NCBI GenBank assembly: GCA_947177035.1
Contig: CAMWSS010000024.1
Coordinates: forward strand, 1-37,295
Direction of reading: 5' to 3'
DNA from: an uncultured Porphyromonadaceae bacterium
Lineage (GTDB): Bacteria; Bacteroidota; Bacteroidia; Bacteroidales; Muribaculaceae
DNA length: 37,295 nucleotides
Shown: in pieces, positions 3 through 27,371 of the stretch
Numbering within the stretch: the stretch's first letter is position 1
Layout of the letters: every line of letters starts with the position of its first letter
Notes under the pieces: generated by a model
The model's database searches: none
What the model saw: the letters and a program-made list of their open reading frames with translations, nothing else
Told to the model about the DNA's origin: nothing
Translations under genes and position numbers: made by a program

Positions 3-626
3 GTCCTGTTGCGCGGCTTCGCAATCGGCGTGTTGATCTCGGCTCCAATGGGTCCGATCGGCATGCTTGTGATTCAACGCACTCTCAACAAAGGCCGGTG
101 GGCCGCCTTTTTCACCGGCATCGGCGCAAGCCTGAGCGATCTGCTATACTGCCTGCTGACCGGATTCGGCATGAGCTTCATCACCGAATTCGTCGAACAG
201 AACCAGATGGTGTTGCAGCTGATCGGCTCGGTGGTTCTCGCCGCATTCGGCATATACCTGTTTCGCAATAATCCGGCGCGCGCGCTGCGACACCCTGGTC
301 CGGGAGCCAACACCTACTGGAAAGATCTGATGACCGGATTTCTCTTCACAGTCAGCAACCCGCTGATCCTCTTCTTCATAATCGGTCTGTTCGCACGGTT
401 CAACTTCCTGCTTCCGGAGTTTGAATTCATTCACTATGTTTCCGGCTATGCCAGCATCGTCATCGGCGCGATATTCTGGTGGTTCTCGATCACCTATTCC
501 GTCAACAAAGTGCGCTCCCACTTCAACGTGCGCTCGCTGTGGCTCGTCAACCGCATTATCGGCGGACTGCTGATCATATTCTCAATCGCCGGCGCAGTGA
601 CCGGCATCAACGACCTTCTGGGTTGA
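3..626 (+). CDS. LysE/RhtB-type amino-acid exporter, 5' partial
   Basis: Membrane protein of the LysE translocator family, which exports amino acids or related small molecules; the substrate cannot be told from sequence. The frame is open to the left edge (codons from base 3), so the true start is probably a few residues outside the window. The TTG at base 9 is not a convincing start. The N-terminal signature SAPMGPIGMLVIQRTLNKGR matches the conserved glycine/proline-rich entry of the family. About six hydrophobic segments follow, with a charged stretch near residues 90-105. Length of about 207 residues fits the family. The stop lies 33 bases before the 5'-nucleotidase start, so co-transcription is likely. 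Confidence 0.85.
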   Translation, partial: VLLRGFAIGVLISAPMGPIGMLVIQRTLNKGRWAAFFTGIGASLSDLLYCLLTGFGMSFITEFVEQNQMVLQLIGSVVLAAFGIYLFRNNPARALRHPGPGANTYWKDLMTGFLFTVSNPLILFFIIGLFARFNFLLPEFEFIHYVSGYASIVIGAIFWWFSITYSVNKVRSHFNVRSLWLVNRIIGGLLIIFSIAGAVTGINDLLG

Positions 627-16696: not shown

Positions 16697-16733
16697 CACG
16701 GCCTGCTTCCATCCCGAAGCGGGCCGTGTTTTG
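16697..16733 (+). terminator. Terminator of the GH109-like gene
   Basis: A 13-base stem CACGGCCTGCTTC (16697-16709) / GAAGCGGGCCGTG (16716-16728), with one G-U pair and a 6-base loop, followed by TTTTGTT. Confidence 0.85.
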
Positions 16734-16749
16734 TTATTTCCTTTTTCGG

Positions 16750-16789
16750 AAAGAAAGCGAAAGTTTTTTGCTTTTCTTTCGCTTTCTTT
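16750..16789. promoter_or_regulatory. Palindromic operator candidate at the fic1 promoter
   Basis: Perfect 14-base inverted repeat AAAGAAAGCGAAAG (16750-16763) / CTTTCGCTTTCTTT (16776-16789) with a 12-base centre. The centre contains the -33 TTTG (16767-16770), and the right arm fills the -33/-7 spacer. A bound protein would block polymerase. The 36 bases 16754-16789 recur exactly at 18132-18167. A hairpin role in RNA is possible but less attractive, because most of the palindrome lies upstream of the predicted transcription start. Confidence 0.7.
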
Positions 16790-16798
16790 GTAATTTTG
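16767..16798 (+). promoter_or_regulatory. Promoter of fic1, near-leaderless
   Basis: TTTG at 16767-16770, a 20-base spacer and TAATTTTG at 16791-16798. The ATG at 16804 is only 5 bases after the -7 box, so transcription should begin at or within a few bases of the start codon. Confidence 0.75.
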
Positions 16799-16803
16799 CA
16801 AGC

Positions 16804-18111
16804 ATGATTGAACAACCTCCTCATATAAAAATCGAAAACGGTGTCACGGATGACCGGTCAAACCCGGATTTAATGGATAGGATTATCCACATAAACAATG
16901 AATATTTATATTGGTCTGATGTGAAATACCGTGCCAAGGGCGTCGGCGTTTCTGCTGAGGAACTGTGGCGACAGGTCAAGAATGTCAGACTTATGCGCGA
17001 TGTGATTGTCTGGCCTGAATTCGGCCTACATTTCTCGCTGACTGACAGAATGCAGCGGATGTGTCATGAATTCGATCTGAATTTTGGCGGTTCCTGGGGG
17101 GCTATGAAGCTGTTTCCGCAGGATAAAGTGAACCAGGAATTATATCTGATAAGCTCCATCATGGAAGAAGCTATCTCGTCAAGCCAGATGGAAGGTGCTG
17201 TTACAACCCGCGAGGCCGCCAAGGCAATGCTCCGAAAGAGGATGGAACCTCGCGATCGTTCGCAGCGTATGATATTTAATAACTATCAGACGATTCAGTT
17301 CATTGCTGAAAATAAACATAAACCGCTTACGCCTGAACTGCTCCTGAAAGTGCACTCACTGATGACGGATGGGACACTGGAAAATCATGAAGATGTCGGT
17401 CGATTCAGAACTCATGACAGCATTGTGGTTGGCAACAGTGTGACAGGTGAAATAGTGCATCGTCCTCCGACGCACGAATGCCTTTCTGCTTTTGCCGAGA
17501 GATTGTGCTTATTTTTTAACTCTTCGTCATCCGGACTATTTCTGCATCCTGTCATAAAGGGGATAATCATCCATTTCATTGTGGCCTATTACCACCCGTT
17601 TGTCGATGGAAACGGACGCACCGCGCGAGCATTGTTCTATTGGTATATGCTCAAAGAAAATTACTGGCTGGTGGAATACCTCTCTATTTCCCGTGTAATC
17701 TACAAGTCGAAGGCCCGTTATGAAAAATCATTTCTTTATGCCGAAAGTGACGGCAATGATCTCGGGTATTTCATAACCTACAATTTAGACGTGCTTGCCA
17801 AAGCGTTTGACGGATTAAAGAAATATCTTCAAAAGAAGCAACTTGAAAGAACACGTGCAGATCGGTTTATGCATCTCGGCGACATTTCACGTCAGCAATC
17901 CGAAATTATAAGAATGTATTACGATAACGGCGACATCGCATTGGAAGCTAAAGACATAGCCTTGCAGTTCAGAGTGTCGCGCGTCACGGCAAAATCATAT
18001 CTTGATGGATTGGCCGCCAAGGGTATTCTGACAAGGATTCAGCCAAATGGCAGAACCCATGCCTATGTGCGCTCTGACAACTTCGATAAAATAATTGGTA
18101 ATATACAATAA
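16804..18111 (+). CDS. Fic-domain protein with C-terminal winged helix (fic1)
   Basis: Class II Fic protein of 435 residues. Fic enzymes usually transfer AMP from ATP to a hydroxyl side chain of a target protein. The catalytic motif is complete: HPFVDGNGRTAR with His264, Asp268, Asn270 and Arg272. The N-terminal inhibitory helix motif (S/T)xxxE(G/N) is present as SSQMEG (Ser126, Glu130, Gly131), implying autoinhibition. Residues about 360-430 form a winged helix-turn-helix (EAKDIALQFRVSRVTAKSYL then a GRTHAYV wing). ATG 16804 gives an almost leaderless mRNA; Met24 (ATG 16873) is an alternative with a normal leader. The gene is clearly more AT-rich than its neighbours and is flanked by an exact 36-base repeat, which suggests transfer. 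The target is unknown. Confidence 0.9.
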   Translation: MIEQPPHIKIENGVTDDRSNPDLMDRIIHINNEYLYWSDVKYRAKGVGVSAEELWRQVKNVRLMRDVIVWPEFGLHFSLTDRMQRMCHEFDLNFGGSWGAMKLFPQDKVNQELYLISSIMEEAISSSQMEGAVTTREAAKAMLRKRMEPRDRSQRMIFNNYQTIQFIAENKHKPLTPELLLKVHSLMTDGTLENHEDVGRFRTHDSIVVGNSVTGEIVHRPPTHECLSAFAERLCLFFNSSSSGLFLHPVIKGIIIHFIVAYYHPFVDGNGRTARALFYWYMLKENYWLVEYLSISRVIYKSKARYEKSFLYAESDGNDLGYFITYNLDVLAKAFDGLKKYLQKKQLERTRADRFMHLGDISRQQSEIIRMYYDNGDIALEAKDIALQFRVSRVTAKSYLDGLAAKGILTRIQPNGRTHAYVRSDNFDKIIGNIQ

Positions 18112-18131
18112 ATCAGCAACACGCCGACTAC

Positions 18132-18167
18132 AAAGCGAAAGTTTTTTGCTTTTCTTTCGCTTTCTTT
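18132..18167. repeat. Second copy of the fic1 palindrome
   Basis: Exact 36-base direct repeat of 16754-16789, starting 20 bases after the fic1 stop and 1378 bases from the first copy. Its inverted arms are AAAGCGAAAG (18132-18141) and CTTTCGCTTT (18154-18163). Right half-sites then repeat about every 10-11 bases (CTTTCG at 18154, 18164 and 18175). It could bind the same regulator or serve as a weak T-rich terminator. Confidence 0.8.
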
Positions 18168-18243
18168 CGCTTTTCTTTCGATTGTGAGAAAGCGTCCGGA
18201 TTCAGCTTCTGCGCCTGAGTCAGATAAAAATGTGTGCAAAAAC

Positions 18244-18274
18244 TTGCGTAATTGCCGAAAAATTCGTTACTTTG
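18244..18274 (+). promoter_or_regulatory. Promoter of the rpmB-rpmG operon
   Basis: TTG at 18244-18246, a 20-base spacer and TTACTTTG at 18267-18274 (consensus TAnnTTTG with T for A at base 2), followed by CAC. The predicted leader is unusually long, about 140 bases. Confidence 0.6.
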
Positions 18275-18281
18275 CACCACT

Positions 18282-18364
18282 GTTTTGACACCGCGTGCCG
18301 GGAAAACCGCTGATAATGATGCAGTCAGCGGCGATATGAGCGAAGGACGTGCCTCTGTCAAGAC
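18282..18364 (+). ncRNA. Candidate structured leader RNA of rpmB
   Basis: The leader is closed by a 9-base stem, GTTTTGACA (18282-18290) with TGTCAAGAC (18356-18364), containing one G-U pair. Inside it a perfect 7-base hairpin CCGCTGA (18307-18313) / TCAGCGG (18325-18331) forms. I do not recognise it as a named family. A ribosomal-protein feedback leader is the natural guess. Confidence 0.45.
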
Positions 18365-18421
18365 CACCCCGAGACAAAAAACAAAATACTATAACCAGTA
18401 GAAGACCAACAACGAACAGCC

Positions 18422-18685
18422 ATGTCAAAGATGTGTCAAATCACGGGCAAGAAGGCCATGACAGGTAACAACGTTTCGCACTCGAAGCGTCGCACCAAGC
18501 GCAAATTCAACGTTAACCTCTTCACCAAGAAATTCTTCTGGGTGGAGCAGCAAATGTGGATCAGCCTCACCATCTCGGCAAAAGGACTGCGCACCATCAA
18601 CAAACTCGGCCTCAACGCCGCCATGCTGCAAGCCGCCGAAAAAGGATATCTGAACGACAAGGACATTAAATTTCTGGGAGCATAA
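18422..18685 (+). CDS. rpmB: Large-subunit ribosomal protein bL28
   Basis: Ribosomal protein of 87 residues. The N-terminal [20 protein letters not shown] and following basic segment [11 protein letters not shown] are diagnostic of bL28 in Bacteroidetes. It binds 23S rRNA in the 50S subunit. It is first in a bL28-bL33-DUF4295 cluster and sits behind a long leader. The stop is 5 bases before rpmG. Confidence 0.97.
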
Positions 18686-18690
18686 TCATC

Positions 18691-18879
18691 ATGGCAAAGA
18701 AAGCTAAAGGTAATCGCGTACAGGTAATCCTGGAATGCACCGAACACAAAGCCAGCGGCATGCCTGGCACTTCGCGCTACATCACAACCAAAAACCGCAA
18801 GAACACCACCGAACGTCTTGAGCTGAAGAAATACAACCCCATCCTCAAGCGTGTGACTGTTCACAAAGAGATAAAATAA
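18691..18879 (+). CDS. rpmG: Large-subunit ribosomal protein bL33
   Basis: Ribosomal protein of 62 residues, with [21 protein letters not shown] and [18 protein letters not shown] as bL33 signatures. Only one cysteine is present (in LECTE), so this is the zinc-free form lacking the four-cysteine ribbon. It is in the operon with rpmB and the DUF4295 gene. Confidence 0.97.
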
Positions 18880-18908
18880 TCTATCCACCTTCTTAAGTTC
18901 ATCAGGAA

Positions 18909-19058
18909 ATGGCAAAGAAAACCGTGGCCTCACTTCAGAAGGGTGAAGGCCGTACCTACAGCAAGATCATCAAGATGGAGCGTTCTCCCAAAACCGGCGC
19001 TTACGTCTTCAAGGAAGAGATGGTGCCCAACGATCAGGTAAAAACCGCTCTGAAATAA
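18909..19058 (+). CDS. DUF4295 small basic protein
   Basis: Small protein of 49 residues (MAKKTVASLQKGEGRTYSKI...), beginning at ATG 18909 and ending with TAA at 19056-19058. DUF4295 proteins are found in Bacteroidetes directly after bL33 and are probably ribosome-associated, though the function is unproven. The chain is basic at the N-terminus with a beta-like middle (GAYVFKEEMV). Start-to-stop spacing from rpmG is 29 bases, consistent with one operon. Confidence 0.88.
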   Translation: MAKKTVASLQKGEGRTYSKIIKMERSPKTGAYVFKEEMVPNDQVKTALK

Positions 19059-19094
19059 TCTCTCAGACACTATCAATCCCGCATAAAAGCATAG

Positions 19095-19120
19095 ACGCCC
19101 CGCCAAGCGGGGCGTTTGCG
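19095..19120 (+). terminator. Hairpin after the ribosomal protein cluster
   Basis: Perfect 9-base inverted repeat ACGCCCCGC (19095-19103) / GCGGGGCGT (19107-19115) with a 3-base loop. The T-tail is poor (TTGCG), so read-through into the PAP2 gene is possible. Confidence 0.6.
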
Positions 19121-19140
19121 CTTTCCACCCGTCTTGCCTT

Positions 19141-19908
19141 ATGATCCGACTGACTTTAATGATCATGGCCTTGCTGGCAGGATGTCAGGCCAGAGTCTTC
19201 GGCTCAACGCCCGACCAGTCGCAGGCCGACACCCTTACATATGCCGTGGCATCCGAAAAATTCCGGCCACGGCAGCTGATCCTGCCGGGAGCGCTCTTGG
19301 CCGCAGGAGCCGCTGGTGTGGCCTGGGGAGATCAGTTCAACCGCTACATTCGCGATGAAATGCACCGGATCAGCGGCGGCCGGCGCATCCACGCCGACGA
19401 CTATGTGCAATATGTTCCGGCCGCAGCCTATCTCGGGCTGGGTGCGATTCCCGGAGTGCCATGCCGCCACAATTTCAAAGAACGATTCATGGCCGAAGCC
19501 ACAGCTTACGTCACAATGGCTGTGCTTACCAACGCGCTGAAATATACCGTGCGCGAACAGCGCCCCGACGCATCAACACGCAACTCTTTTCCGTCGGGCC
19601 ACACCGCCACAGTCTTCACCGCCGCGGAACTGATCAGACAGAGCTATCCAGCCGGAATAGCCGCCGGAGCATACACTGTGGCAGTCGGCGTGGCATTCCT
19701 CAGGCTCTACAACAACCGCCACTGGCTCAACGACGTCGTGGCCGGCGCCGGAATCGGCATACTCTCGGCCAGAGTGGGCATGTGGATGCTCCCGCTCTAC
19801 AGGAAGTGGCTCCACATAAACCCGCGGACGGACCGCGCAGTGGCTCTTCTGCCATTCTACAACGCCCCGGCACGATCTGCCGGAATCGCCTTCACAATGA
19901 CACTCTGA
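19141..19908 (+). CDS. PAP2-superfamily phosphatase, lipoprotein
   Basis: Membrane-associated phosphatase of 255 residues. A lipobox-like LLAGC (Cys15) suggests a lipoprotein, or the segment could be a signal anchor. The three PAP2 motifs are intact: KYTVREQRP (motif 1), SFPSGHTA (motif 2 with catalytic-pocket His) and RLYNNRHWLNDVVAG (motif 3 with the nucleophilic His and its Asp). Hydrophobic segments surround them. The family removes phosphate from lipids such as undecaprenyl pyrophosphate, phosphatidate or lipid A; the substrate here is not readable. It ends 32 bases before uvrA and may be co-transcribed. Confidence 0.88.
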   Translation: MIRLTLMIMALLAGCQARVFGSTPDQSQADTLTYAVASEKFRPRQLILPGALLAAGAAGVAWGDQFNRYIRDEMHRISGGRRIHADDYVQYVPAAAYLGLGAIPGVPCRHNFKERFMAEATAYVTMAVLTNALKYTVREQRPDASTRNSFPSGHTATVFTAAELIRQSYPAGIAAGAYTVAVGVAFLRLYNNRHWLNDVVAGAGIGILSARVGMWMLPLYRKWLHINPRTDRAVALLPFYNAPARSAGIAFTMTL

Positions 19909-19940
19909 ACATTCACCGGGCCTCACTCATTCAATAGTTT

Positions 19941-22754
19941 ATGTCAACGAACATCATAGCAAAAGGCGTCAGAGTCAACAATCTGAAAAACGTCAACGTT
20001 GAAATTCCGCGCAACAGGCTCATCGTCATCACCGGACTGAGCGGAAGCGGCAAGTCTTCGCTGGCATTCGACACCCTGTATGCCGAAGGACAACGCCGCT
20101 ATGTTGAAAGCCTGTCGGCCTATGCCCGTCAGTTCATGGGCAAAATGCAAAAACCCGAAGCCGACTTTATCCGCGGACTGCCGCCGGCAATCGCGATCGA
20201 GCAGAAGGTCAACACCCGCAACCCGCGATCGACAGTGGGCACCTCCACCGAAATCTATGACTACCTGCGGCTGCTCTTCGGGCGCATCGGCAAGACAATC
20301 TCGCCGGTCAGCGGCGACGAAGTGAAAAAACACACCGTCAACGACGTTGTGGCCGCCGCCACATCATTTGCCGACGGAGTGCGCATGGCGGTTGTGGCCC
20401 CGCTTGAAATTCCGGAAGGACGCACCCTCAGGCAACACCTCGACATTCTGCTCAAAGGAGGATACACTCGCCTGCACCGCGACGGGACGTTTCTGATGAT
20501 CGAAGATCTGCTCGCCGACAAAAAACTGCCCGATCTCCCCGACACTCCGGCCGACCTGCTGATTGACCGGCTGAGCCTCCACGCCGACCTGCCCGACGAA
20601 CTCAACCGACTGCGCGAATCGGCCGAAATCGCATTCTTCGAAGGCCACGAACGCATGGCCCTGATGGTCTGGGACGGCACGCCGCAACAACCTCGGCGCA
20701 TCGAGTTCAGCACCCGCTTCGAAGCCGACGGAATCACCTTTGCCGAACCGTCGGACCTTATGTTCAACTTCAACAATCCGGTGGGAGCCTGCCCCACCTG
20801 CGAAGGCTTCGGAAAGGTGATGGGCATAGACGAGGCCCTGGTGGTGCCCGACGTGACCCGCTCGGTCTATGACGACGCCGTGGTGTGCTGGCGCGGAGAG
20901 AAGATGAGCGAATGGAAACACTGGTTCATAAAACACAACCCCGAATTCCCGATCCACAGGCCATATGCCGACCTCACCGCCCAACAGCGCGACCTGCTCT
21001 GGCACGGAAGCGGAAAACGCAGCCGCAACGAGGCTTCGATCGACAATTTCTTCAAGTTTGTCGAAGAGAATCTGTATAAAATACAATATCGCGTGATGCT
21101 CGCACGCTATCGCGGCAAGACAGTCTGTCCGGACTGCCGCGGCGCGCGCCTGCGTCCCGAAGCACAATACGTGAAAGTGGGCGGACGCACCATCACCGAG
21201 CTGGTGGCCATGCCCGTCGGCCGGCTGCTTGAATGGTTCCGCGAACTTAAACTCGACAGCCACGACACGGCCGTGGCCACACGCCTGCTCACAGAGATCG
21301 ACAGCCGCCTGTCGTATCTCGACGAAGTCGGTCTCGGATACCTCACGCTCGACCGCCTGTCGTCAACCCTGTCGGGCGGCGAAAGCCAGCGCATCAACCT
21401 GGCCACCTCGCTCGGCAGCTCTCTGGTCGGATCGCTCTATATCCTCGACGAACCGAGCATCGGACTGCACTCGCGCGACACTCAACGCCTGATCGGAGTG
21501 CTTGCCAAACTCCGCGCCATCGGCAACACGGTGGTCGTGGTCGAACACGACGAAGAGATCATGGCCGCCGCCGACTATATCATCGACGTCGGCCCCGACG
21601 CCGGACGCCTCGGCGGCGAAATCGTCTACCAAGGTCCGGCTGACGAACTGAAAAGCGCCATCGGGCGCAGCTACACGGCCGACTACCTCCTTGGCGCGCG
21701 CAGCATCCCCGTTCCGGCCACACGCCGCCGCCAGGGAAGCTACATTCAGGTAGACGGCGCCCGCGAACACAATCTGAAAAACATCGACGTCAGATTTCCG
21801 CTCGAAGTGATGACCGTGGTCACCGGAGTGAGCGGAAGCGGCAAATCCACCCTGGTGCGCGACGTGCTCTACCGCGCGCTCATACGCCGCCTCGGACAAC
21901 CCGGCGACGCTCCCGGCGCCCACCGCGGACTCTCGGGCGACGTCGACCGAATCCAGGCCGTGGAATTCATCGACCAGAACCCGATCGGCAAAAGCAGCCG
22001 GTCAAACCCGGCCACATATCTCAAGGCCTACGACGAAATCCGTCAGCTATTCGCCGACTGCCAGCTGGCAAAACAGATGGGCTTCACTCCATCTTACTTT
22101 TCATTCAACGCCGAAGGAGGCCGATGCGAGGAGTGCAAAGGCGAAGGGTCGATCACCATCGAAATGCAGTTCATGGCCGACATAACTATAACCTGCGAAA
22201 GCTGCAACGGCAAACGCTTCAAGCCCGAAGTGATCGAAGTCGAATACCGCGGACGGAGCATCTGCGACGTGCTCGACATGACAGTGAACCAGGCCATCGA
22301 ATTCTTCGCCGAAACCGACGGCGCGGCCGAACGCCGCATCGTGCGCCGGCTGAAACCGCTCCAGGAAGTCGGACTGGGCTACATCAAGCTCGGACAATCG
22401 TCAAGCACCCTGTCGGGCGGCGAAAACCAGCGCGTCAAGCTCGCATACTACCTGAGCCAGGAAAAACCGCAGCCCACGATGTTCATTTTCGACGAACCGA
22501 CCACCGGACTGCACTTCCACGACATCTCCACCCTGCTCCACGCCTTTGACCGCCTCATCGGCATGGGCCACACAGTGGTGATCATCGAGCACAACATGGA
22601 CGTGATCAAATGTGCCGACCACGTGATCGACATCGGCCCCGAAGGCGGCGATGCCGGAGGATACGTCGTCGCCGAAGGCACCCCTGAAGAAATCGTGGCC
22701 GCCGACCGCGGATACACAGCCGGATACCTCAAAGAGAAACTAACAAGATCATGA
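19941..22754 (+). CDS. uvrA: Excinuclease ABC subunit A
   Basis: DNA-damage recognition ATPase of nucleotide excision repair, 937 residues, acting with UvrB and UvrC. Two ABC modules are seen: first Walker A GLSGSGKSS (32-40) with signature LSGGESQRI and Walker B YILDEPSIGLH; second Walker A GVSGSGKST (about 628-636) with LSGGENQRV and FIFDEPTTGLH. Zinc-binding CxxC pairs are CPTC, CPDC, CEEC and CESC. The UvrB-interaction segment lies between about 120 and 250. Length and order are standard. Its TGA overlaps the ispE ATG by 4 bases, implying translational coupling of DNA repair and isoprenoid genes. Confidence 0.98.
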   Translation: MSTNIIAKGVRVNNLKNVNVEIPRNRLIVITGLSGSGKSSLAFDTLYAEGQRRYVESLSAYARQFMGKMQKPEADFIRGLPPAIAIEQKVNTRNPRSTVGTSTEIYDYLRLLFGRIGKTISPVSGDEVKKHTVNDVVAAATSFADGVRMAVVAPLEIPEGRTLRQHLDILLKGGYTRLHRDGTFLMIEDLLADKKLPDLPDTPADLLIDRLSLHADLPDELNRLRESAEIAFFEGHERMALMVWDGTPQQPRRIEFSTRFEADGITFAEPSDLMFNFNNPVGACPTCEGFGKVMGIDEALVVPDVTRSVYDDAVVCWRGEKMSEWKHWFIKHNPEFPIHRPYADLTAQQRDLLWHGSGKRSRNEASIDNFFKFVEENLYKIQYRVMLARYRGKTVCPDCRGARLRPEAQYVKVGGRTITELVAMPVGRLLEWFRELKLDSHDTAVATRLLTEIDSRLSYLDEVGLGYLTLDRLSSTLSGGESQRINLATSLGSSLVGSLYILDEPSIGLHSRDTQRLIGVLAKLRAIGNTVVVVEHDEEIMAAADYIIDVGPDAGRLGGEIVYQGPADELKSAIGRSYTADYLLGARSIPVPATRRRQGSYIQVDGAREHNLKNIDVRFPLEVMTVVTGVSGSGKSTLVRDVLYRALIRRLGQPGDAPGAHRGLSGDVDRIQAVEFIDQNPIGKSSRSNPATYLKAYDEIRQLFADCQLAKQMGFTPSYFSFNAEGGRCEECKGEGSITIEMQFMADITITCESCNGKRFKPEVIEVEYRGRSICDVLDMTVNQAIEFFAETDGAAERRIVRRLKPLQEVGLGYIKLGQSSSTLSGGENQRVKLAYYLSQEKPQPTMFIFDEPTTGLHFHDISTLLHAFDRLIGMGHTVVIIEHNMDVIKCADHVIDIGPEGGDAGGYVVAEGTPEEIVAADRGYTAGYLKEKLTRS

Positions 22755-23587
22755 TACTGTTTCCCCACGCTAAAATAAACCTGGGACTCGACATCGTGGC
22801 GCGCCGCGCCGACGGATACCACGACATCGAGACCGTGATGATGCCCGCCGGATGGGAAGACGTGCTCGAACTGACCCCGTCGGACCGGCGCCACACCTCG
22901 CTGTCGGTATCCGGACGCACCGTCCAATGCCCGCCTGAAAAAAACCTGGTGATGAAAGCATTCCGCGCCATGGAAGCCGCCACCGGCGGACTGCCCCCCA
23001 CCGACATCCGCCTCCACAAAGTCATCCCCGACGGCGCCGGACTCGGTGGCGGATCGGCCGACGCCGCATTCACTCTGCGCGGACTCAACGAACTCTACAA
23101 CGTCGGCATGACCGAAACCCAGCTCTGCCGGATCGCCGCCTCAATCGGCGCCGACTGCCCGTTTTTCATCGCCGACCGGCCGATGCTCTGCACCGGCACC
23201 GGCACCGACATGACCCCCGTCAGCCTCCCCGACTTCAGCGGCCTGACTCTGGCCATTGTCAAGCCGCCGGTCAGCGTGAACACCGCCGCGGCCTACTCGC
23301 GCGTGACCCCGCACCACCCGGAAGTGCCGCTGGCCCAACGCATCGCCGCGCCCATAGACCGATGGCAGGACTCGATCGTCAACGACTTCGAACAATCAGT
23401 CTTCCCGCAATTTCCGGAAATCGCACGGACCAAAGAACTGATGCTCGGAGCCGGCGCCCTCTATGCTGCCATGAGTGGCAGCGGATCTGCCGTTTTTGGC
23501 CTGTTTGAAGGCATGACAACTGACATTTTGTCAGACCGCATGAACCTCACATTTCCCGGCTGCCCGCTATATTGCCGCTCGCTATGA
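22751..23587 (+). CDS. ispE: 4-(cytidine 5'-diphospho)-2-C-methyl-D-erythritol kinase
   Basis: GHMP kinase of the non-mevalonate (MEP) isoprenoid pathway; phosphorylates CDP-methylerythritol with ATP in the cytoplasm. It is 278 residues long, normal for IspE. The N-terminal HAKINLGLDIVARRADGYHD carries the catalytic Lys8. The glycine-rich ATP loop is PDGAGLGGGSADAA (93-106), and GADCPFF places the catalytic Asp135. The GHMP C-terminal loop MSGSGSAVFGLF is present. It overlaps uvrA by 4 bases and shares its transcript. Confidence 0.96.
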   Translation: MILFPHAKINLGLDIVARRADGYHDIETVMMPAGWEDVLELTPSDRRHTSLSVSGRTVQCPPEKNLVMKAFRAMEAATGGLPPTDIRLHKVIPDGAGLGGGSADAAFTLRGLNELYNVGMTETQLCRIAASIGADCPFFIADRPMLCTGTGTDMTPVSLPDFSGLTLAIVKPPVSVNTAAAYSRVTPHHPEVPLAQRIAAPIDRWQDSIVNDFEQSVFPQFPEIARTKELMLGAGALYAAMSGSGSAVFGLFEGMTTDILSDRMNLTFPGCPLYCRSL

Positions 23588-23624
23588 ACGCTTTCCGGCA
23601 CCACGGCGTTATAATTCAAGATTA

Positions 23625-23648
23625 TTGCCGCCATCCGGCAAAGTTTTT
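23625..23648 (+). terminator. Weak terminator candidate after ispE
   Basis: Six-base stem TTGCCG (23625-23630) / CGGCAA (23636-23641), 5-base loop, then AGTTTTT. The stem is short, so this is tentative. Confidence 0.35.
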
Positions 23649-23689
23649 GATATCAACAGATAAACATAATTAACAACATCCACCGGAAT

Positions 23690-24280
23690 ATGAGCAAACA
23701 CAACCATAATGCCCACGAGGCAACCCAAGAAACCCCCGAAGTGAACGAACAGGAAACCACTGGCGCAGAATCGGCCGAAATCATGGACAACATGGAAGCC
23801 GAAGCCGGTGCCGACGAAACGGAAGCCCTGAAAGATCAACTCGACAAACTTCAGCAGGAACTGGACAAAGAGAAGAAAGAATACCTGTTTCTGATGGCCG
23901 AATTCGACAACTTCCGCAAGCGCACGCTCAAGGAAAAAGCCGAACTGATCCGCAACGGCGCCGAATCGGCGATGAAAAGCCTGCTTCCGGTCGTCGACGA
24001 CTTCGAGCGCGGAATCGACGCGATCAAAGCGACATCAGACGCCGACGCCGTCAAGGAGGGAATGATCCTCATCTACAACAAATTCGTGAAATACCTCGAA
24101 CAAAACGGCGTCAAAGCCATGGACACCAACGGTCAGCCATACGACGCCGACCTGCACGAAGCCGTGGCCTTGGTGCCCGGCGACGAAGCTAACAAAGGCC
24201 TGATCATCGACACTATCCAGAAAGGCTATCTGATCAACGACAAAGTGCTCCGTCACGCAAAAGTGGCGGTTGGCCAATAA
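23690..24280 (+). CDS. grpE: Nucleotide exchange factor GrpE
   Basis: Co-chaperone of 196 residues that releases ADP from DnaK. An acidic, low-complexity N-terminus (1-45) precedes a long helix (about 45-80, LKDQLDKLQQELDKEKKEY), which forms the dimeric coiled coil. The family core FLMAEFDNFRKRTLKEKAEL and the C-terminal beta-wing (VALVPGDEANKGLIIDTIQKGY...VLRHAKVAV, given in parts) are typical. The stop is 18 bases before dnaJ, so the two form a chaperone operon. dnaK is not in this window. Confidence 0.96.
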   Translation: MSKHNHNAHEATQETPEVNEQETTGAESAEIMDNMEAEAGADETEALKDQLDKLQQELDKEKKEYLFLMAEFDNFRKRTLKEKAELIRNGAESAMKSLLPVVDDFERGIDAIKATSDADAVKEGMILIYNKFVKYLEQNGVKAMDTNGQPYDADLHEAVALVPGDEANKGLIIDTIQKGYLINDKVLRHAKVAVGQ

Positions 24281-24298
24281 ATCTCCCCTCCAAACGCT

Positions 24299-25474
24299 AT
24301 GGCTGACAAACGAGACTATTACGAAGTGCTCGGCGTGGCTAAAACCGCCACGGCCGACGAAATAAAAAAAGCATACCGGAAAAAAGCCATCCAGTATCAC
24401 CCCGACAAAAACCCCGGCGACAAAGAAGCCGAAGAAAAATTCAAGGAAGCCGCCGAAGCATACGAAGTGCTCTCCGACGCCGACAAGCGCGCGCGCTATG
24501 ACCAGTTCGGCCACAACATGGGACCGCAGGGCTTCCCCGGAGGAGGCGGATTCGGCGGATTCAGCTCCGGAGGAATGAGCATGGAAGATATCTTCGAACA
24601 TTTCGGCGATATCTTCGGCGGACGCTTCAACATGGGCGGAGGATTCGGAGGCGCCACCGGCGGACGCGGCACACGCCGACGCCAGCGCAAAGGCTCAGAC
24701 CTGCGAATCACCGTCAAGATGACACTGGCCGAAATCGCCACCGGAGTCACAAAAACGCTGAAAATCCCGACACTCGACAAGTGCGACCACTGCAACGGCA
24801 CCGGCGCCAAAGACGGCACGGCCTTCACCACCTGCCAGACATGCGGCGGATCGGGTGTGGTCAGCCAGGTCCAGCAGACAATGTTCGGAGCCATGCAGTC
24901 ACAAAGCGTCTGCCCCCACTGCCAGGGTGAAGGCAAAATCATCTCGCAGCCATGCTCCCACTGCAACGGCGAAGGAGTGACACGCAAGGAAAACACCGTC
25001 AGCTTCACAATCCCCGCCGGAGTGAGCGACGGAATGGTGCTAACCCTCAAAGGCAAAGGCAACGCCCCGGCACACGGAGGCGTCAACGGAGACCTCCTCG
25101 TGGTGATCCAGGAAGTCAAAGACAGCGAACTCATCCGCGACGGAAACGACGTAATCTTCAACCTGATGCTCGACATCCCGACGGCAGCCCTCGGCGGATC
25201 CGTCGAAGTGCCCACAATCAACGGACACGCCCGACTCAACATCCCCGCCGGCACACAACCCGGAAAAGTGCTCCGCCTCCGCGGCAAAGGACTGCCGGCC
25301 TATGGCGAAAGCGGCACAGGCGACGAACTCATCAACGTCATGGTCTACATCCCCGAAAACCTAACCCCCGCCCAGCGCGAAGCGTTCGAGAAAATGCGCG
25401 CCGACTCCAACATCAAACCCGACGAAAGCATGACCCGGCGACTCTTCTCCAAACTCCGCCACATCTTCGAATAA
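24299..25474 (+). CDS. dnaJ: Chaperone protein DnaJ (Hsp40)
   Basis: Type I Hsp40 of 391 residues that delivers clients to DnaK and stimulates its ATPase. The J domain (5-70) has HPD at 34-36. A Gly/Phe-rich linker (about 75-130) follows. Four zinc-finger CxxCxGxG repeats are intact at Cys162/165, Cys179/182, Cys205/208 and Cys219/222. Two beta-barrel substrate domains and a C-terminal dimerisation segment complete the chain. Length and order are standard. It is co-transcribed with grpE and followed by a good hairpin terminator. Confidence 0.98.
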
Positions 25475-25499
25475 CCACCTATCCGGCATATACGTCGTG

Positions 25500-25533
25500 A
25501 CGGCAGCCCCTCAAGGCTGCCGTTCTCGTTTTG
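25500..25533 (+). terminator. Terminator of grpE-dnaJ
   Basis: Perfect 9-base inverted repeat ACGGCAGCC (25500-25508) / GGCTGCCGT (25515-25523), 6-base loop, then TCTCGTTTTG. Its tail abuts the first half-site of the fic2 operator (25530). Confidence 0.72.
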
Positions 25534-25595
25534 CGGCGAATATCACCCGCATTCACCGCAAATTTGCGGTGAATATTTGCCGTATTCACCGCAAA
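25530..25595. promoter_or_regulatory. Tandem palindromic operator of fic2
   Basis: Two contiguous 33-base units, 25530-25562 and 25563-25595, identical at 28 of 33 positions. Each is a palindrome of the form TTTGCGGtGAAT, 9 bases, ATTCACCGCAAA; unit 1 has one C variant in the left arm. At the junction the arms form a perfect 24-base palindrome (25551-25574). The spacer of unit 2 contains the -33 TTTG (25576-25579). A fifth partial half-site TTTGCGGT (25604-25611) overlaps the -7 box and ends at the ATG. Confidence 0.78.
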
Positions 25596-25607
25596 TCACT
25601 ATTTTTG
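25576..25607 (+). promoter_or_regulatory. Promoter of fic2, leaderless
   Basis: TTTG at 25576-25579, a 20-base spacer and TATTTTTG at 25600-25607. The ATG is at 25612, 4 bases after the -7 box, so the transcript should begin at or next to the start codon. Confidence 0.75.
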
Positions 25608-25611
25608 CGGT

Positions 25612-26721
25612 ATGAGAAAGAATGTAATTCCAAGCGTATACATCTGGCAAAGAGCCAAATGGCCTGATTTCAGATGGAATTCGGATGCATTACTGGAGGC
25701 ATTGAGCCGACTTAACCATGCACATGGCATACTGCACGGTCGGATGCAGATGGTCGGGTTCAGCCAGCAGAGCAGGTCACTGCTGTCGGCCATGACTGAA
25801 GAACTGATCAGTTCCTCCGAGATTGAGGGCATCACGCTGAATCCCGCTTCCGTAAGGAGCAGCATTGCCCGGAGACTTGGTATTGAGGACGGTGTGACAC
25901 TCGCTGAGGACCACTATGTGGACGGACTTGTCGATGTGATGATGGATGCTGTCGGCAATTGTCGCGAACCGCTCACTGCCGAACGGCTCTTTGCATGGCA
26001 CTCGGCTCTGTTTCCGCTCGGACGCAGCGGAATGTTCAGAATCACTGTTGGTGACTGGCGGAAAGGCGACGAGCCGATGCAGGTTGTGTCTGGAGCGATG
26101 GGACATGAGAAAGTGCACTATGAGGCACCCGCGTCGGCTGATGTGCCGGCTGCCATGGAGGCTCTTATCGACTATTGCAACCGTTCCGACCAGTCCCCGT
26201 TTATCATGGCTGCTGTGGTCCACCTGTGGTTTGTCAGCATCCATCCGTTTGACGACGGCAACGGCCGCATCAGCCGCACGCTGGCAGATATGCTGCTGGC
26301 CCGTCTTGATGACAATGCGGCGCGCTATTACAGTATGTCGGCCGAGATCAACCGCAATAAAAAGGCTTATTACGACATTCTTGAGCGCACTCAGAAAGGA
26401 GACCTTGACATAACCGAATGGATCCTGTGGTTTTTTGACTGTCTGGAAAATGCTATCGGCAGAGCGTCGGACAAAGTAGTCGACACAATGAAAAAGGCGG
26501 CCTACTGGTCGAAGTTCTGCAATGTCGATATCAATTGGAGGCAACGCAAGGTGATCAATCGGCTGTGGGACGGATTCGAAGGAAAACTGACCTCATCGAA
26601 GTGGGCGAAGATATGCGGGTGTTCGCAGGATACGGCTCTGCGTGACATCAATGATCTTATCGCCAAGGGGATGCTGCGCAACAGCGGCGAAGGAGGACGC
26701 AGTGCCAACTATGTGATCTGA
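25612..26721 (+). CDS. Fic-domain protein, DUF4172 N-terminus, C-terminal winged helix (fic2)
   Basis: Class II Fic protein of 369 residues, a probable AMP-transferase. The N-terminus (YIWQRAKWPDFRWNSDALLE) is of the DUF4172/Fic_N type. This fixes the start at ATG 25612, because the next Met is at residue 45. The inhibitory motif is SSEIEG (Ser68, Glu72, Gly73). The catalytic loop is HPFDDGNGRISR, from His211 to Arg222, with all key residues. The C-terminus (about 300-369) is a winged helix (SSKWAKICGCSQDTALRDIN, then a GGRSANYVI wing). The body is moderately less GC-rich than dnaJ. It stands alone between two terminators, with an elaborate operator at its promoter. The target protein is unknown; autoregulation is inferred. 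Confidence 0.92.
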   Translation: MRKNVIPSVYIWQRAKWPDFRWNSDALLEALSRLNHAHGILHGRMQMVGFSQQSRSLLSAMTEELISSSEIEGITLNPASVRSSIARRLGIEDGVTLAEDHYVDGLVDVMMDAVGNCREPLTAERLFAWHSALFPLGRSGMFRITVGDWRKGDEPMQVVSGAMGHEKVHYEAPASADVPAAMEALIDYCNRSDQSPFIMAAVVHLWFVSIHPFDDGNGRISRTLADMLLARLDDNAARYYSMSAEINRNKKAYYDILERTQKGDLDITEWILWFFDCLENAIGRASDKVVDTMKKAAYWSKFCNVDINWRQRKVINRLWDGFEGKLTSSKWAKICGCSQDTALRDINDLIAKGMLRNSGEGGRSANYVI

Positions 26722-26745
26722 CAGCGCGCCGGCCACCCATAACGA

Positions 26746-26793
26746 CACCGCCCGCCGGAGGGTGAGTCCGGGCGGGCGGTGGTAAGGGCTTTT
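26746..26793. terminator. Terminator between the convergent fic2 and DUF308 genes
   Basis: Perfect 11-base inverted repeat CACCGCCCGCC (26746-26756) / GGCGGGCGGTG (26771-26781), with further inner pairing CCGGA/TCCGG. It is followed on the + strand by GTAAGGGCTTTTT. Confidence 0.75.
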
Positions 26794-26810
26794 TGCGTGT
26801 GGACGGAAGA

Positions 26811-27371
26811 TCAGTCGTTGCCGTTGTTGACCGCGGGCTTCATGTCATAAGCCAGCAAAGCCAGCGAGAAGCCCCAGTAGATAAACGCGAGCGATGTCAG
26901 GAACGCAACGTTGACCGTATTGCTCACATAACCCTCCTCAAGGAATATGAACCCGATCAGCAGCAAAAGAATGCCATTGACAATGTGGAGCCACCAATAA
27001 CGCTGGCCGCGCGAATTCACCGCGCCGACCAGAGCGCCGACGCCCCAGAAGATGAACACAAAGGCAATGAAATAAGGAAACACTGCCTCGGCCAGAACCA
27101 CACTGCGCACCAGCATGAAGCCGATAAACATATCGATCACACCGCCGGCAAGCCACCAGCCCCATCCGCGGGGACGGTTCACGCCGGCCGACACACACAC
27201 CTGCACCACTCCGGCGCCCACAAGCATCCACCCGAAAAGCACCGAAGCCACCGCATAGCCCTGAACCGGGAAAAACCAATAGGCAAAGCCTGCGATAACC
27301 ATGAGAATACCGACCAGAAGCACGACCCACCATGCTTTGCTCCGGCCCCAGAAATTAACGATTTTTTTCAT
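26811..27371 (-). CDS. DUF308/HdeD-family membrane protein
   Basis: Inner-membrane protein of 186 residues. Six hydrophobic helices in three pairs, rich in Gly/Trp and with short loops, match the HdeD/DUF308 pattern; FWGVGALVGAVNSRG and YWWLHIVNGILLLLIGF are typical pieces. In enteric bacteria HdeD is linked to acid resistance, but most DUF308 members are uncharacterised and the role here is unknown. The start is the ATG at 27369-27371. It is convergent with fic2 and divergent from the GT5-like gene across a 194-base gap. That gap holds the GT5-like gene's promoter; I did not find a convincing promoter for this gene. Confidence 0.82.
   Translation of the reverse strand: MKKIVNFWGRSKAWWVVLLVGILMVIAGFAYWFFPVQGYAVASVLFGWMLVGAGVVQVCVSAGVNRPRGWGWWLAGGVIDMFIGFMLVRSVVLAEAVFPYFIAFVFIFWGVGALVGAVNSRGQRYWWLHIVNGILLLLIGFIFLEEGYVSNTVNVAFLTSLAFIYWGFSLALLAYDMKPAVNNGND

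What the first reader, a model, noticed from the sequence alone, without database searches (positions are those of the whole stretch)
16750..26721. Two Fic-wHTH genes share one regulatory design with unrelated operator sequences
Both genes encode class II Fic proteins with the inhibitory SxxxEG helix and a C-terminal winged helix. In both, the promoter is TTTG-N20-TAnnTTTG, a palindrome is centred on the -33 box with its right arm in the spacer, and the -7 box lies 4-5 bases before the ATG. Operator sequences are different (AAAGCGAAAG versus TTTGCGGTGAAT). The simplest model is that each protein represses its own gene through its own operator, with AMP transfer or target status changing DNA binding. 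This would be a paired family of self-contained AMPylation/transcription switches. Fic proteins with winged helices are known; this parallel promoter design is, to my knowledge, not a standard description.
Basis: partly seen in the sequence, partly recalled or inferred. Interest (0 to 1): 0.75.

Follow-up and report, generated by a model that had tools for sequence, protein, structure and literature searches.

The report
Self-operated Fic genes, one operator-bracketed
Two genes for protein-tagging Fic enzymes in a gut bacterium each carry, in their own promoter, a DNA palindrome that very probably binds the enzyme's own DNA-reading domain, and one of the two has the same palindrome again just behind it, a layout that recurs in about a third of its relatives and has no known explanation.

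Summary
In detail: both Fic-wHTH genes have TTTG-N20-TAnnTTTG promoters with a palindrome centred on the -33 box. Promoter palindromes are strongly enriched in relatives (81 of 171 Fic genes with a long C-terminal tail, 14 of 230 neighbouring genes; a later set of gene-1 relatives, 40 of 57). The two arms change together between genes, and operator similarity follows the protein's wHTH rather than its Fic domain (not separable in a wider set). Autoregulation by each protein's own wHTH is thus well supported, though no binding was measured. In principle it is known: CccR of Yersinia does this (PMC9755527). AMP transfer as the switch is untested. The short -7-to-ATG distance belongs to near relatives only, and one wHTH-Fic subfamily (4 of 29) is not significantly enriched. 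Such bracketing recurs in gene-1 relatives (own up/down alignment score >=24 in 28 of 91, cross pairs 10 of 600), mostly without a promoter. Whether it makes a loop, a roadblock or a cassette end is open; this is the novel part.

The parts
16804..18111 (+). Gene 1: class II Fic protein with C-terminal wHTH, 435 aa
   Evidence: Fic PF02661 E 1.1e-15; HTH matches at 360-425 all below Pfam cut-off; PADLOC SoFic model E 4.1e-43 over 106-426; AlphaFold2 model, mean pLDDT 82, with helix-helix-helix-strand-strand at 363-423; best PDB fold match SoFic 3zcn, E 4e-12
16750..16789 (.). Operator of gene 1: 14-nt perfect inverted arms, 12 nt between, centred on the -33 box
16767..16798 (+). Promoter of gene 1: TTTG 16767-16770, N20, TAATTTTG 16791-16798
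   Evidence: read; same motif in relatives
18132..18167 (.). Second, exact 36-nt copy of the gene-1 operator, starting 20 nt after the stop; a further half-site at 18164-18173
16740..18186 (.). Probable acquired cassette operator-gene-operator (ends approximate), GC 0.439 against 0.566 for the window
   Evidence: BLAST homology to G096 begins at 18187, 19 nt beyond the exact copy; left end judged by eye after a terminator also seen in G096; GC; no match in the other 10 genomes of the genus at E<=1e-30
25612..26721 (+). Gene 2: DUF4172-Fic-wHTH protein, 369 aa, homologue of CbFic2 (PDB 8CIL)
   Evidence: DUF4172 E 5.6e-29, Fic E 1.5e-18; 8cil_A E 2.4e-89 over residues 9-368
25530..25562 (.). 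First of two tandem 33-nt palindromes
25563..25595 (.). Second 33-nt palindrome, centred on the -33 box, right arm in the spacer
25551..25574 (.). 24-bp palindrome without spacer, formed by the right arm of the first and the left arm of the second 33-nt unit; the same pairing is seen in many gene-2 relatives
   Evidence: read; covariation
25576..25607 (+). Promoter of gene 2: TTTG 25576-25579, N20, TATTTTTG 25600-25607
   Evidence: read
25475..26829 (.). Stretch with gene 2 that is absent from G096, where 112 nt stand between dnaJ and the next homologous stretch

Best explanation
Each gene is a single-gene, self-limiting Fic module. The C-terminal wHTH of a Fic dimer binds an inverted repeat lying on the -33 box and in the spacer of the gene's own promoter and keeps RNA polymerase off, so that a potentially toxic AMP-transferase (related to SoFic, CccR and CbFic2) stays at a low level. 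wHTH and operator have evolved together, which is why the two genes have unrelated operator sequences in nearly the same promoter register. In the gene-1 subfamily a second operator, without a promoter, often stands directly behind the stop codon and is most likely bound by the same protein (loop or roadblock). Shown by sequence: architecture, enrichment, covariation of arms, association of operator with wHTH, bracketing. Inferred: binding, repression, dimer on DNA, toxicity, and what releases repression.
For: Palindrome at p<=0.01 in -100..+9 of the start in 81 of 171 deduplicated Fic genes with a long C-terminal tail against 14 of 230 neighbouring genes (Fisher p 2e-22); in a later set of gene-1 relatives 40 of 57. 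Fic genes without an HTH 0 of 8 (7 of these 8 were scanned, no HTH match at E<=1); Fic genes with an N-terminal HTH_17-like domain 4 of 5 (all five match HTH_17 at E 8e-6 to 0.0026, below Pfam's cut-off). Register: of the genes with a -33-centred palindrome of score >=9, the centre is +1.5 nt from the TTTG centre in 12 of 17 gene-1 relatives (22 examined) and 9 of 24 gene-2 relatives (55 examined). Arms covary: own match 10.27 of 11 against 7.55 permuted (gene-1 family, n 26) and 8.95 against 7.61 (gene-2 family, n 56; 8.18 when permuted inside subclades), 0 of 2000 permutations each. Operator similarity follows wHTH identity when Fic-domain identity is partialled out: 0.64 (n 26) and 0.34 (n 56), 0 of 500 permutations each; the reverse partials are 0.08 and 0.07. 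By eye, 79 gene-1 relatives show recognition-helix types going with operator types, e.g. PTTAK with CTTTCCAAT, NFTAR with GCGAGA, RVTAKSY with AGCGAAAG. Gene-1 protein model has a wHTH whose third helix (393-405) carries these residues. Precedent: CccR.
Against: No binding or expression data. cl1_32 is not significantly enriched (4 of 29) and cl0_49 lacks the -33-centred register (0 of 11). Five of 14 short-tailed Fic genes also had a palindrome in the first test (four of these five are the HTH_17 group's positions). In one search the gene-1 'inside subclade' test is nearly the same as the overall one (subclades 25 and 1), and the slid control of the gene-2 family also exceeded all its permutations (7.50 against 6.95), probably because of further half-sites upstream. 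In the wider set of 79 the partials are 0.26 for the wHTH and 0.24 for the Fic domain, so that set does not single out the wHTH. Shared ancestry inflates all these permutation tests. Repression rather than activation is inferred from position.
Confidence: 0.82

Rival explanations
1. The palindromes are bound by an unrelated host regulator that controls Fic genes.
For: No direct binding data exist; a host regulator could act on acquired genes.
Against: Operator sequence differs between genes and goes with the gene's own wHTH; in the window's genome the sites lie at the Fic genes apart from weak matches to the gene-2 pattern; two Fic genes of one genome have unrelated operators.
Confidence: 0.06
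2. Operator binding is above all an allosteric input to the enzyme: DNA-bound dimers deAMPylate or are inactive, free monomers AMPylate (CbFic2-type switch). It may act together with autorepression.
For: Gene 2 is homologous to CbFic2 over residues 9-368, for which DNA binding through the HTH is proposed to switch AMPylation to deAMPylation by dimerisation; random DNA was used there (PMC10628234).
Against: Not tested for any protein here; the position on the -33 box already explains the operator as a repression site. Compatible with the best explanation.
Confidence: 0.3
3. The palindromes act as RNA hairpins (attenuator in front, terminator behind gene 1) rather than as protein sites.
For: Perfect palindromes can fold as RNA; the second copy lies just after the stop codon.
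Against: The front palindrome lies before the predicted transcription start; the simple scan calls no terminator on the copy at 18132-18167 (it calls one at 16697-16728 on + and a weak one at 18129-18111 on -); hairpin function would not tie arm sequence to the wHTH.
Confidence: 0.08
4. The bracketing operators are ends of a mobile cassette, and regulation is secondary.
For: Sporadic occurrence (43 of 397 genomes of the family, 0 of 10 other genomes of the genus); low GC; homology to G096 resumes 19 nt beyond the rear copy; copies often identical including the spacer; longest inverted word shared by the outer flanks slightly longer than in cross pairs (6.12 against 5.28).
Against: No target-site duplication (5.33 against 5.11); no second ORF that looks like a recombinase beside gene 1; no gene-1 half-site pair in the G096 stretches (single one-mismatch half-sites only); copies occur in both relative orientations; no rear copy at gene 2.
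Confidence: 0.2

Closest known systems
CccR of Yersinia pseudotuberculosis (PMC9755527; passages read)
   Same: Fic domain with C-terminal HTH; represses its own gene through an inverted repeat near -35 and -10; dimer needed for repression
   Different: Its operator is two 10-nt arms 26 nt apart; here arms of 12-14 nt lie 7-12 nt apart, centred on the -33 box. CccR is a T6SS effector. The passages found for 'downstream', 'second binding' and 'stop codon' mention no copy behind the gene
CbFic2 (PDB 8CIL; PMC10628234; abstract, outline and passages read)
   Same: Gene 2 matches it over residues 9-368 at E 2.4e-89, with DUF4172, Fic and wHTH
   Different: No specific DNA site was given in the passages read (random DNA was used); its reported target is a host histone
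SoFic anti-phage protein (PADLOC PDLC03963; PMC12249575, passages read)
   Same: Both proteins match the PADLOC SoFic model (E 4.1e-43 and 1.1e-46); gene-1 model is closest to SoFic structures
   Different: NCBIfam SoFic equivalog 61.6 and 46.1 bits against a cut-off of 550; no convincing small antitoxin ORF directly behind either gene; in the paper 'palindrom' occurs 0 times and the operator passages shown are about lac operators
Antitoxin autoregulation, e.g. AbiEi (search listing only)
   Same: Autoregulation through promoter inverted repeats
   Different: There the antitoxin binds DNA; here enzyme and DNA-binding domain are one protein

Membership tests
Class II Fic proteins | HxFx(D/E)GN(G/K)R motif and N-terminal [ST]xxxE[GN] inhibitory helix | tested here: met
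   SSQMEG / HPFVDGNGR and SSEIEG / HPFDDGNGR; Pfam Fic over cut-off
Class II Fic proteins | AMP transfer activity | not testable with these tools
   needs an enzyme assay
Fic-HTH autorepressors (CccR type) | C-terminal HTH or wHTH | tested here: met
   Gene 2: 8cil match through the wHTH. Gene 1: model with H363-374, H382-389, H393-405, E409-412, E420-423 at pLDDT about 82-91, PDB profile matches through this region, hhalign to the gene-2 family over 337 columns, probability 99.6
Fic-HTH autorepressors (CccR type) | Inverted repeat in the own promoter | tested here: met
Fic-HTH autorepressors (CccR type) | Protein binds the repeat and represses | not testable with these tools
   indirect support only
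CbFic2-like Fic proteins | DUF4172 + Fic + wHTH with full-length homology | tested here: met
   gene 2, E 2.4e-89. Gene 1 not: DUF4172 16 bits against a cut-off of 25
SoFic defence system | PADLOC model match | tested here: met
SoFic defence system | NCBIfam SoFic equivalog cut-off | tested here: not met
   61.6 and 46.1 of 550 bits
SoFic defence system | Anti-phage activity | not testable with these tools
   needs plaque assays

The most novel reading that the evidence does not exclude
Gene-1-type Fic genes are operator-bracketed units: the same protein-specific palindrome stands in the promoter and, without a promoter, directly behind the stop codon; the two copies of one gene stay nearly identical while they differ from gene to gene. 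The Fic dimer would close the gene into a loop of about 1.4 kb, or guard both ends of a self-contained mobile cassette, with DNA occupancy setting the AMPylation state of the enzyme.
Probability: 0.3. Interest if true: 0.8.

Novelty: new variant of a known kind. Interest (0 to 1): 0.62.

Why it matters
Fic proteins with a wHTH are widespread, some are anti-phage or toxic, and the CbFic2 paper leaves open whether a specific DNA site exists. The operators here give concrete sites for a homologue of CbFic2 and for the gene-1 family, with a wHTH-to-operator relation that can be read by eye, so DNA control of a Fic enzyme becomes directly testable in gut commensals. An operator copy behind a Fic gene was not met in the literature searches (open-licence library only; listings and a few passages seen).

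Tried and rejected
Rejected or without result: terminator at the 18132 copy; target-site duplication outside the bracketing operators (5.33 against 5.11); the rear copy as operator of the next gene (next ORF convergent 17, same direction 13, none found 4, of 34 bracketed genes; promoter motif in 1 of 39 rear stretches, 20 of 39 front stretches); a clean empty site for the gene-1 relative L226 in G288 (1558 nt against 698 nt differ between the homologous flanks). Phage records: the gene-1 protein matches 6, one of them over at least 80% (MT840011.1, 52% identity); gene 2 matches 24, none over 80%. Plasmid records: gene 1 matches 266, 12 over at least 80%, all under 60% identity. The four-family Fisher test printed used families chosen after looking and is not used; the all-long-tail test is.

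Rows dropped: 233 Fic ORFs were deduplicated at 90% identity to 189, of which 184 were usable. They come from listed matches; one search's list was cut by the tool. Of one search's list I left out five matches at contig edges (G101:C79, G099:C157, G141:C104, G048:C92, G210:C320); I did not fetch a number of listed rows, mostly fragments. Of the 80 loci (itself the best 80 of 571) I left out three (L333, L341, L346), 19 were removed as duplicates, and one whose chosen frame stops after 23 residues (L287) was dropped, leaving 57. Promoter-based tests used only genes with a promoter call (26 of 34 gene-1 and 56 of 67 gene-2 relatives). One search used 79 of 91 genes with a palindrome score of 8 or more.
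Full report
What is there. The window lies in a 2.3-Mb genome of 62 contigs, of a family that is probably Muribaculaceae: the contig of family member G262 has the same length (35,212 bases) as a record titled Muribaculaceae. Gene 1 (16804-18111) and gene 2 (25612-26721) encode class II Fic proteins with C-terminal wHTH domains. Gene 2 is a DUF4172-Fic-wHTH protein that matches CbFic2 (8CIL) over residues 9-368. Gene 1 has only sub-threshold DUF4172, Fic_N and HTH matches, but its model (mean pLDDT 82, pTM 0.77) has a wHTH topology at 363-423 and its best PDB fold match is SoFic, ahead of CbFic2. Both match the PADLOC SoFic model and stay far below the NCBIfam SoFic equivalog cut-off.

Promoters and operators. 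Both genes have TTTG-N20-TAnnTTTG (that this is the Bacteroides promoter consensus is recalled, not from a call) and a palindrome centred on the -33 box with the right arm in the spacer. Gene 2 has two tandem 33-nt palindromes, hence four half-sites; the spacer-free pairing 25551-25574 is also seen in many relatives. In the own genome the gene-1 operator occurs only on the two sides of gene 1; the gene-2 pattern occurs with at most one mismatch only at gene 2, with three weaker places elsewhere.

Enrichment. With the best inverted repeat in -200..+60, 41% of 208 long-tailed Fic genes, 5 of 14 short-tailed ones and 12.6% of 230 neighbouring genes reached p<=0.01. After deduplication, in -100..+9: gene-2 family 39 of 66, gene-1 family 20 of 34, cl0_49 13 of 31, cl1_32 4 of 29, cl2_7 3 of 7, cl5_5 1 of 3, cl8_1 1 of 1 (together 81 of 171); N-terminal HTH_17-like Fic 4 of 5; Fic without HTH 0 of 8; controls 14 of 230. 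HTH content was checked by Pfam in 20 genes, not in all. A later set of gene-1 relatives from named genomes, with records titled Prevotella, Flavobacterium and Treponema among them, gave 40 of 57.

Register. Of genes with a -33-centred palindrome of score 9 or more, the centre lies +1.5 nt from the TTTG centre in 12 of 17 (gene-1 family) and 9 of 24 (gene-2 family, which also has groups at +0.5 and -2.5); cl0_49 has none in 11. The window's own values are about +1.0 and +1.5. The -7-to-ATG distance of 4-5 nt holds in 2 of 19 and 19 of 44.

Who binds. The arms change together: 10.27 of 11 against 7.55, and 8.95 against 7.61, 0 of 2000 permutations each. The gene-1 family forms essentially one subclade, so only the gene-2 within-subclade test (8.18, 0 of 2000) adds something, and there a slid control also exceeded its permutations. 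The two upstream half-sites pair in the gene-2 family (9.16 against 7.66, 0 of 2000) but not in the gene-1 family (6.15 against 6.40). Operator similarity follows wHTH identity after accounting for Fic-domain identity (0.64 and 0.34, 0 of 500 each; reverse 0.08 and 0.07). In 79 gene-1 relatives with automatically taken arms the partials are 0.26 (0 of 300) and 0.24, so this set ties the operator to the protein without singling out the wHTH; by eye its table still shows recognition-helix types going with operator types.

The second operator. Gene 1 has an exact 36-nt copy of its operator starting 20 nt behind its stop. Among gene-1 relatives, front and rear stretches of the same gene align at score >=24 in 28 of 91 against 10 of 600 cross pairs and at >=18 in 34 of 91 against 29 of 600 (Fisher p 7e-19 for the former). 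In the first set alone a 24-nt match of 20 or more was found in 21 of 34 gene-1 relatives, 19 of 150 cross pairs, 2 of 62 gene-2 relatives, 4 of 31 cl0_49 and 0 of 28 cl1_32; in the later set an 18-nt match of 16 or more in 15 of 57, cross 11 of 400, and 0 of 55 at +300..400. In 29 of 33 bracketed genes the match starts within 28 nt of the stop. The rear copy lacks the promoter motif (1 of 39, front 20 of 39) and does not depend on the direction of the next ORF. The spacer between the arms is often identical in both copies, which speaks for copying rather than convergence.

Acquisition. Gene 1 has no match in the other 10 genomes of the genus and is found in 43 of 397 genomes of the family (E<=1e-30); gene 2 is in 1 of the other 10 (51% identity) and in 86 of 397 (E<=1e-40). 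In G096, about 93% identical here, dnaJ is followed after 112 nt by the sequence beyond gene 2, an empty site. For gene 1 the two flanks are on different contigs in G096, so the place is also rearranged or split there; homology resumes at 18187.

Mechanism. Most likely the dimer's wHTH pair occupies the arms across the -33 box and represses. CccR shows this for a Fic-HTH protein. For CbFic2, DNA binding is proposed to change the enzyme's activity, with no specific site given.

Literature seen: PMC9755527 (passages), PMC10628234 (abstract, outline, passages), PMC12249575 (passages); everything else as search listings.

Noticed in passing
window 18132-18173: Exact 36-nt copy of the gene-1 operator behind the gene, plus a further half-site; bracketing recurs in relatives.
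   Followed up: yes
L100, L125, L151, L159, L163: Fic genes with an N-terminal HTH_17-like domain and no long C-terminal tail also carry a promoter palindrome (CTTGCCG/CGGCAAG type) and a further half-site near the ATG.
   Followed up: partly
cl1_32 group, e.g. L019, L027, L033: Fic proteins with a C-terminal wHTH (HTH_24 in the three scanned) whose promoters show no significant palindrome enrichment; their DNA target is unknown.
   Followed up: partly
window 16791-16804 and 25600-25612: The -7 box ends 5 and 4 nt before the ATG, so both mRNAs may be nearly leaderless.
   Followed up: partly
L250, L254, L255, L256 upstream regions: In these gene-2 relatives a palindrome of the GTCGCA/TGCGAC kind lies downstream of the -7 box rather than on the -33 box (by eye).
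   Followed up: no
MT840011.1 (L378): A 5-kb human faecal record labelled Bacteriophage sp. carries a gene-1 homologue at 52% identity.
   Followed up: no
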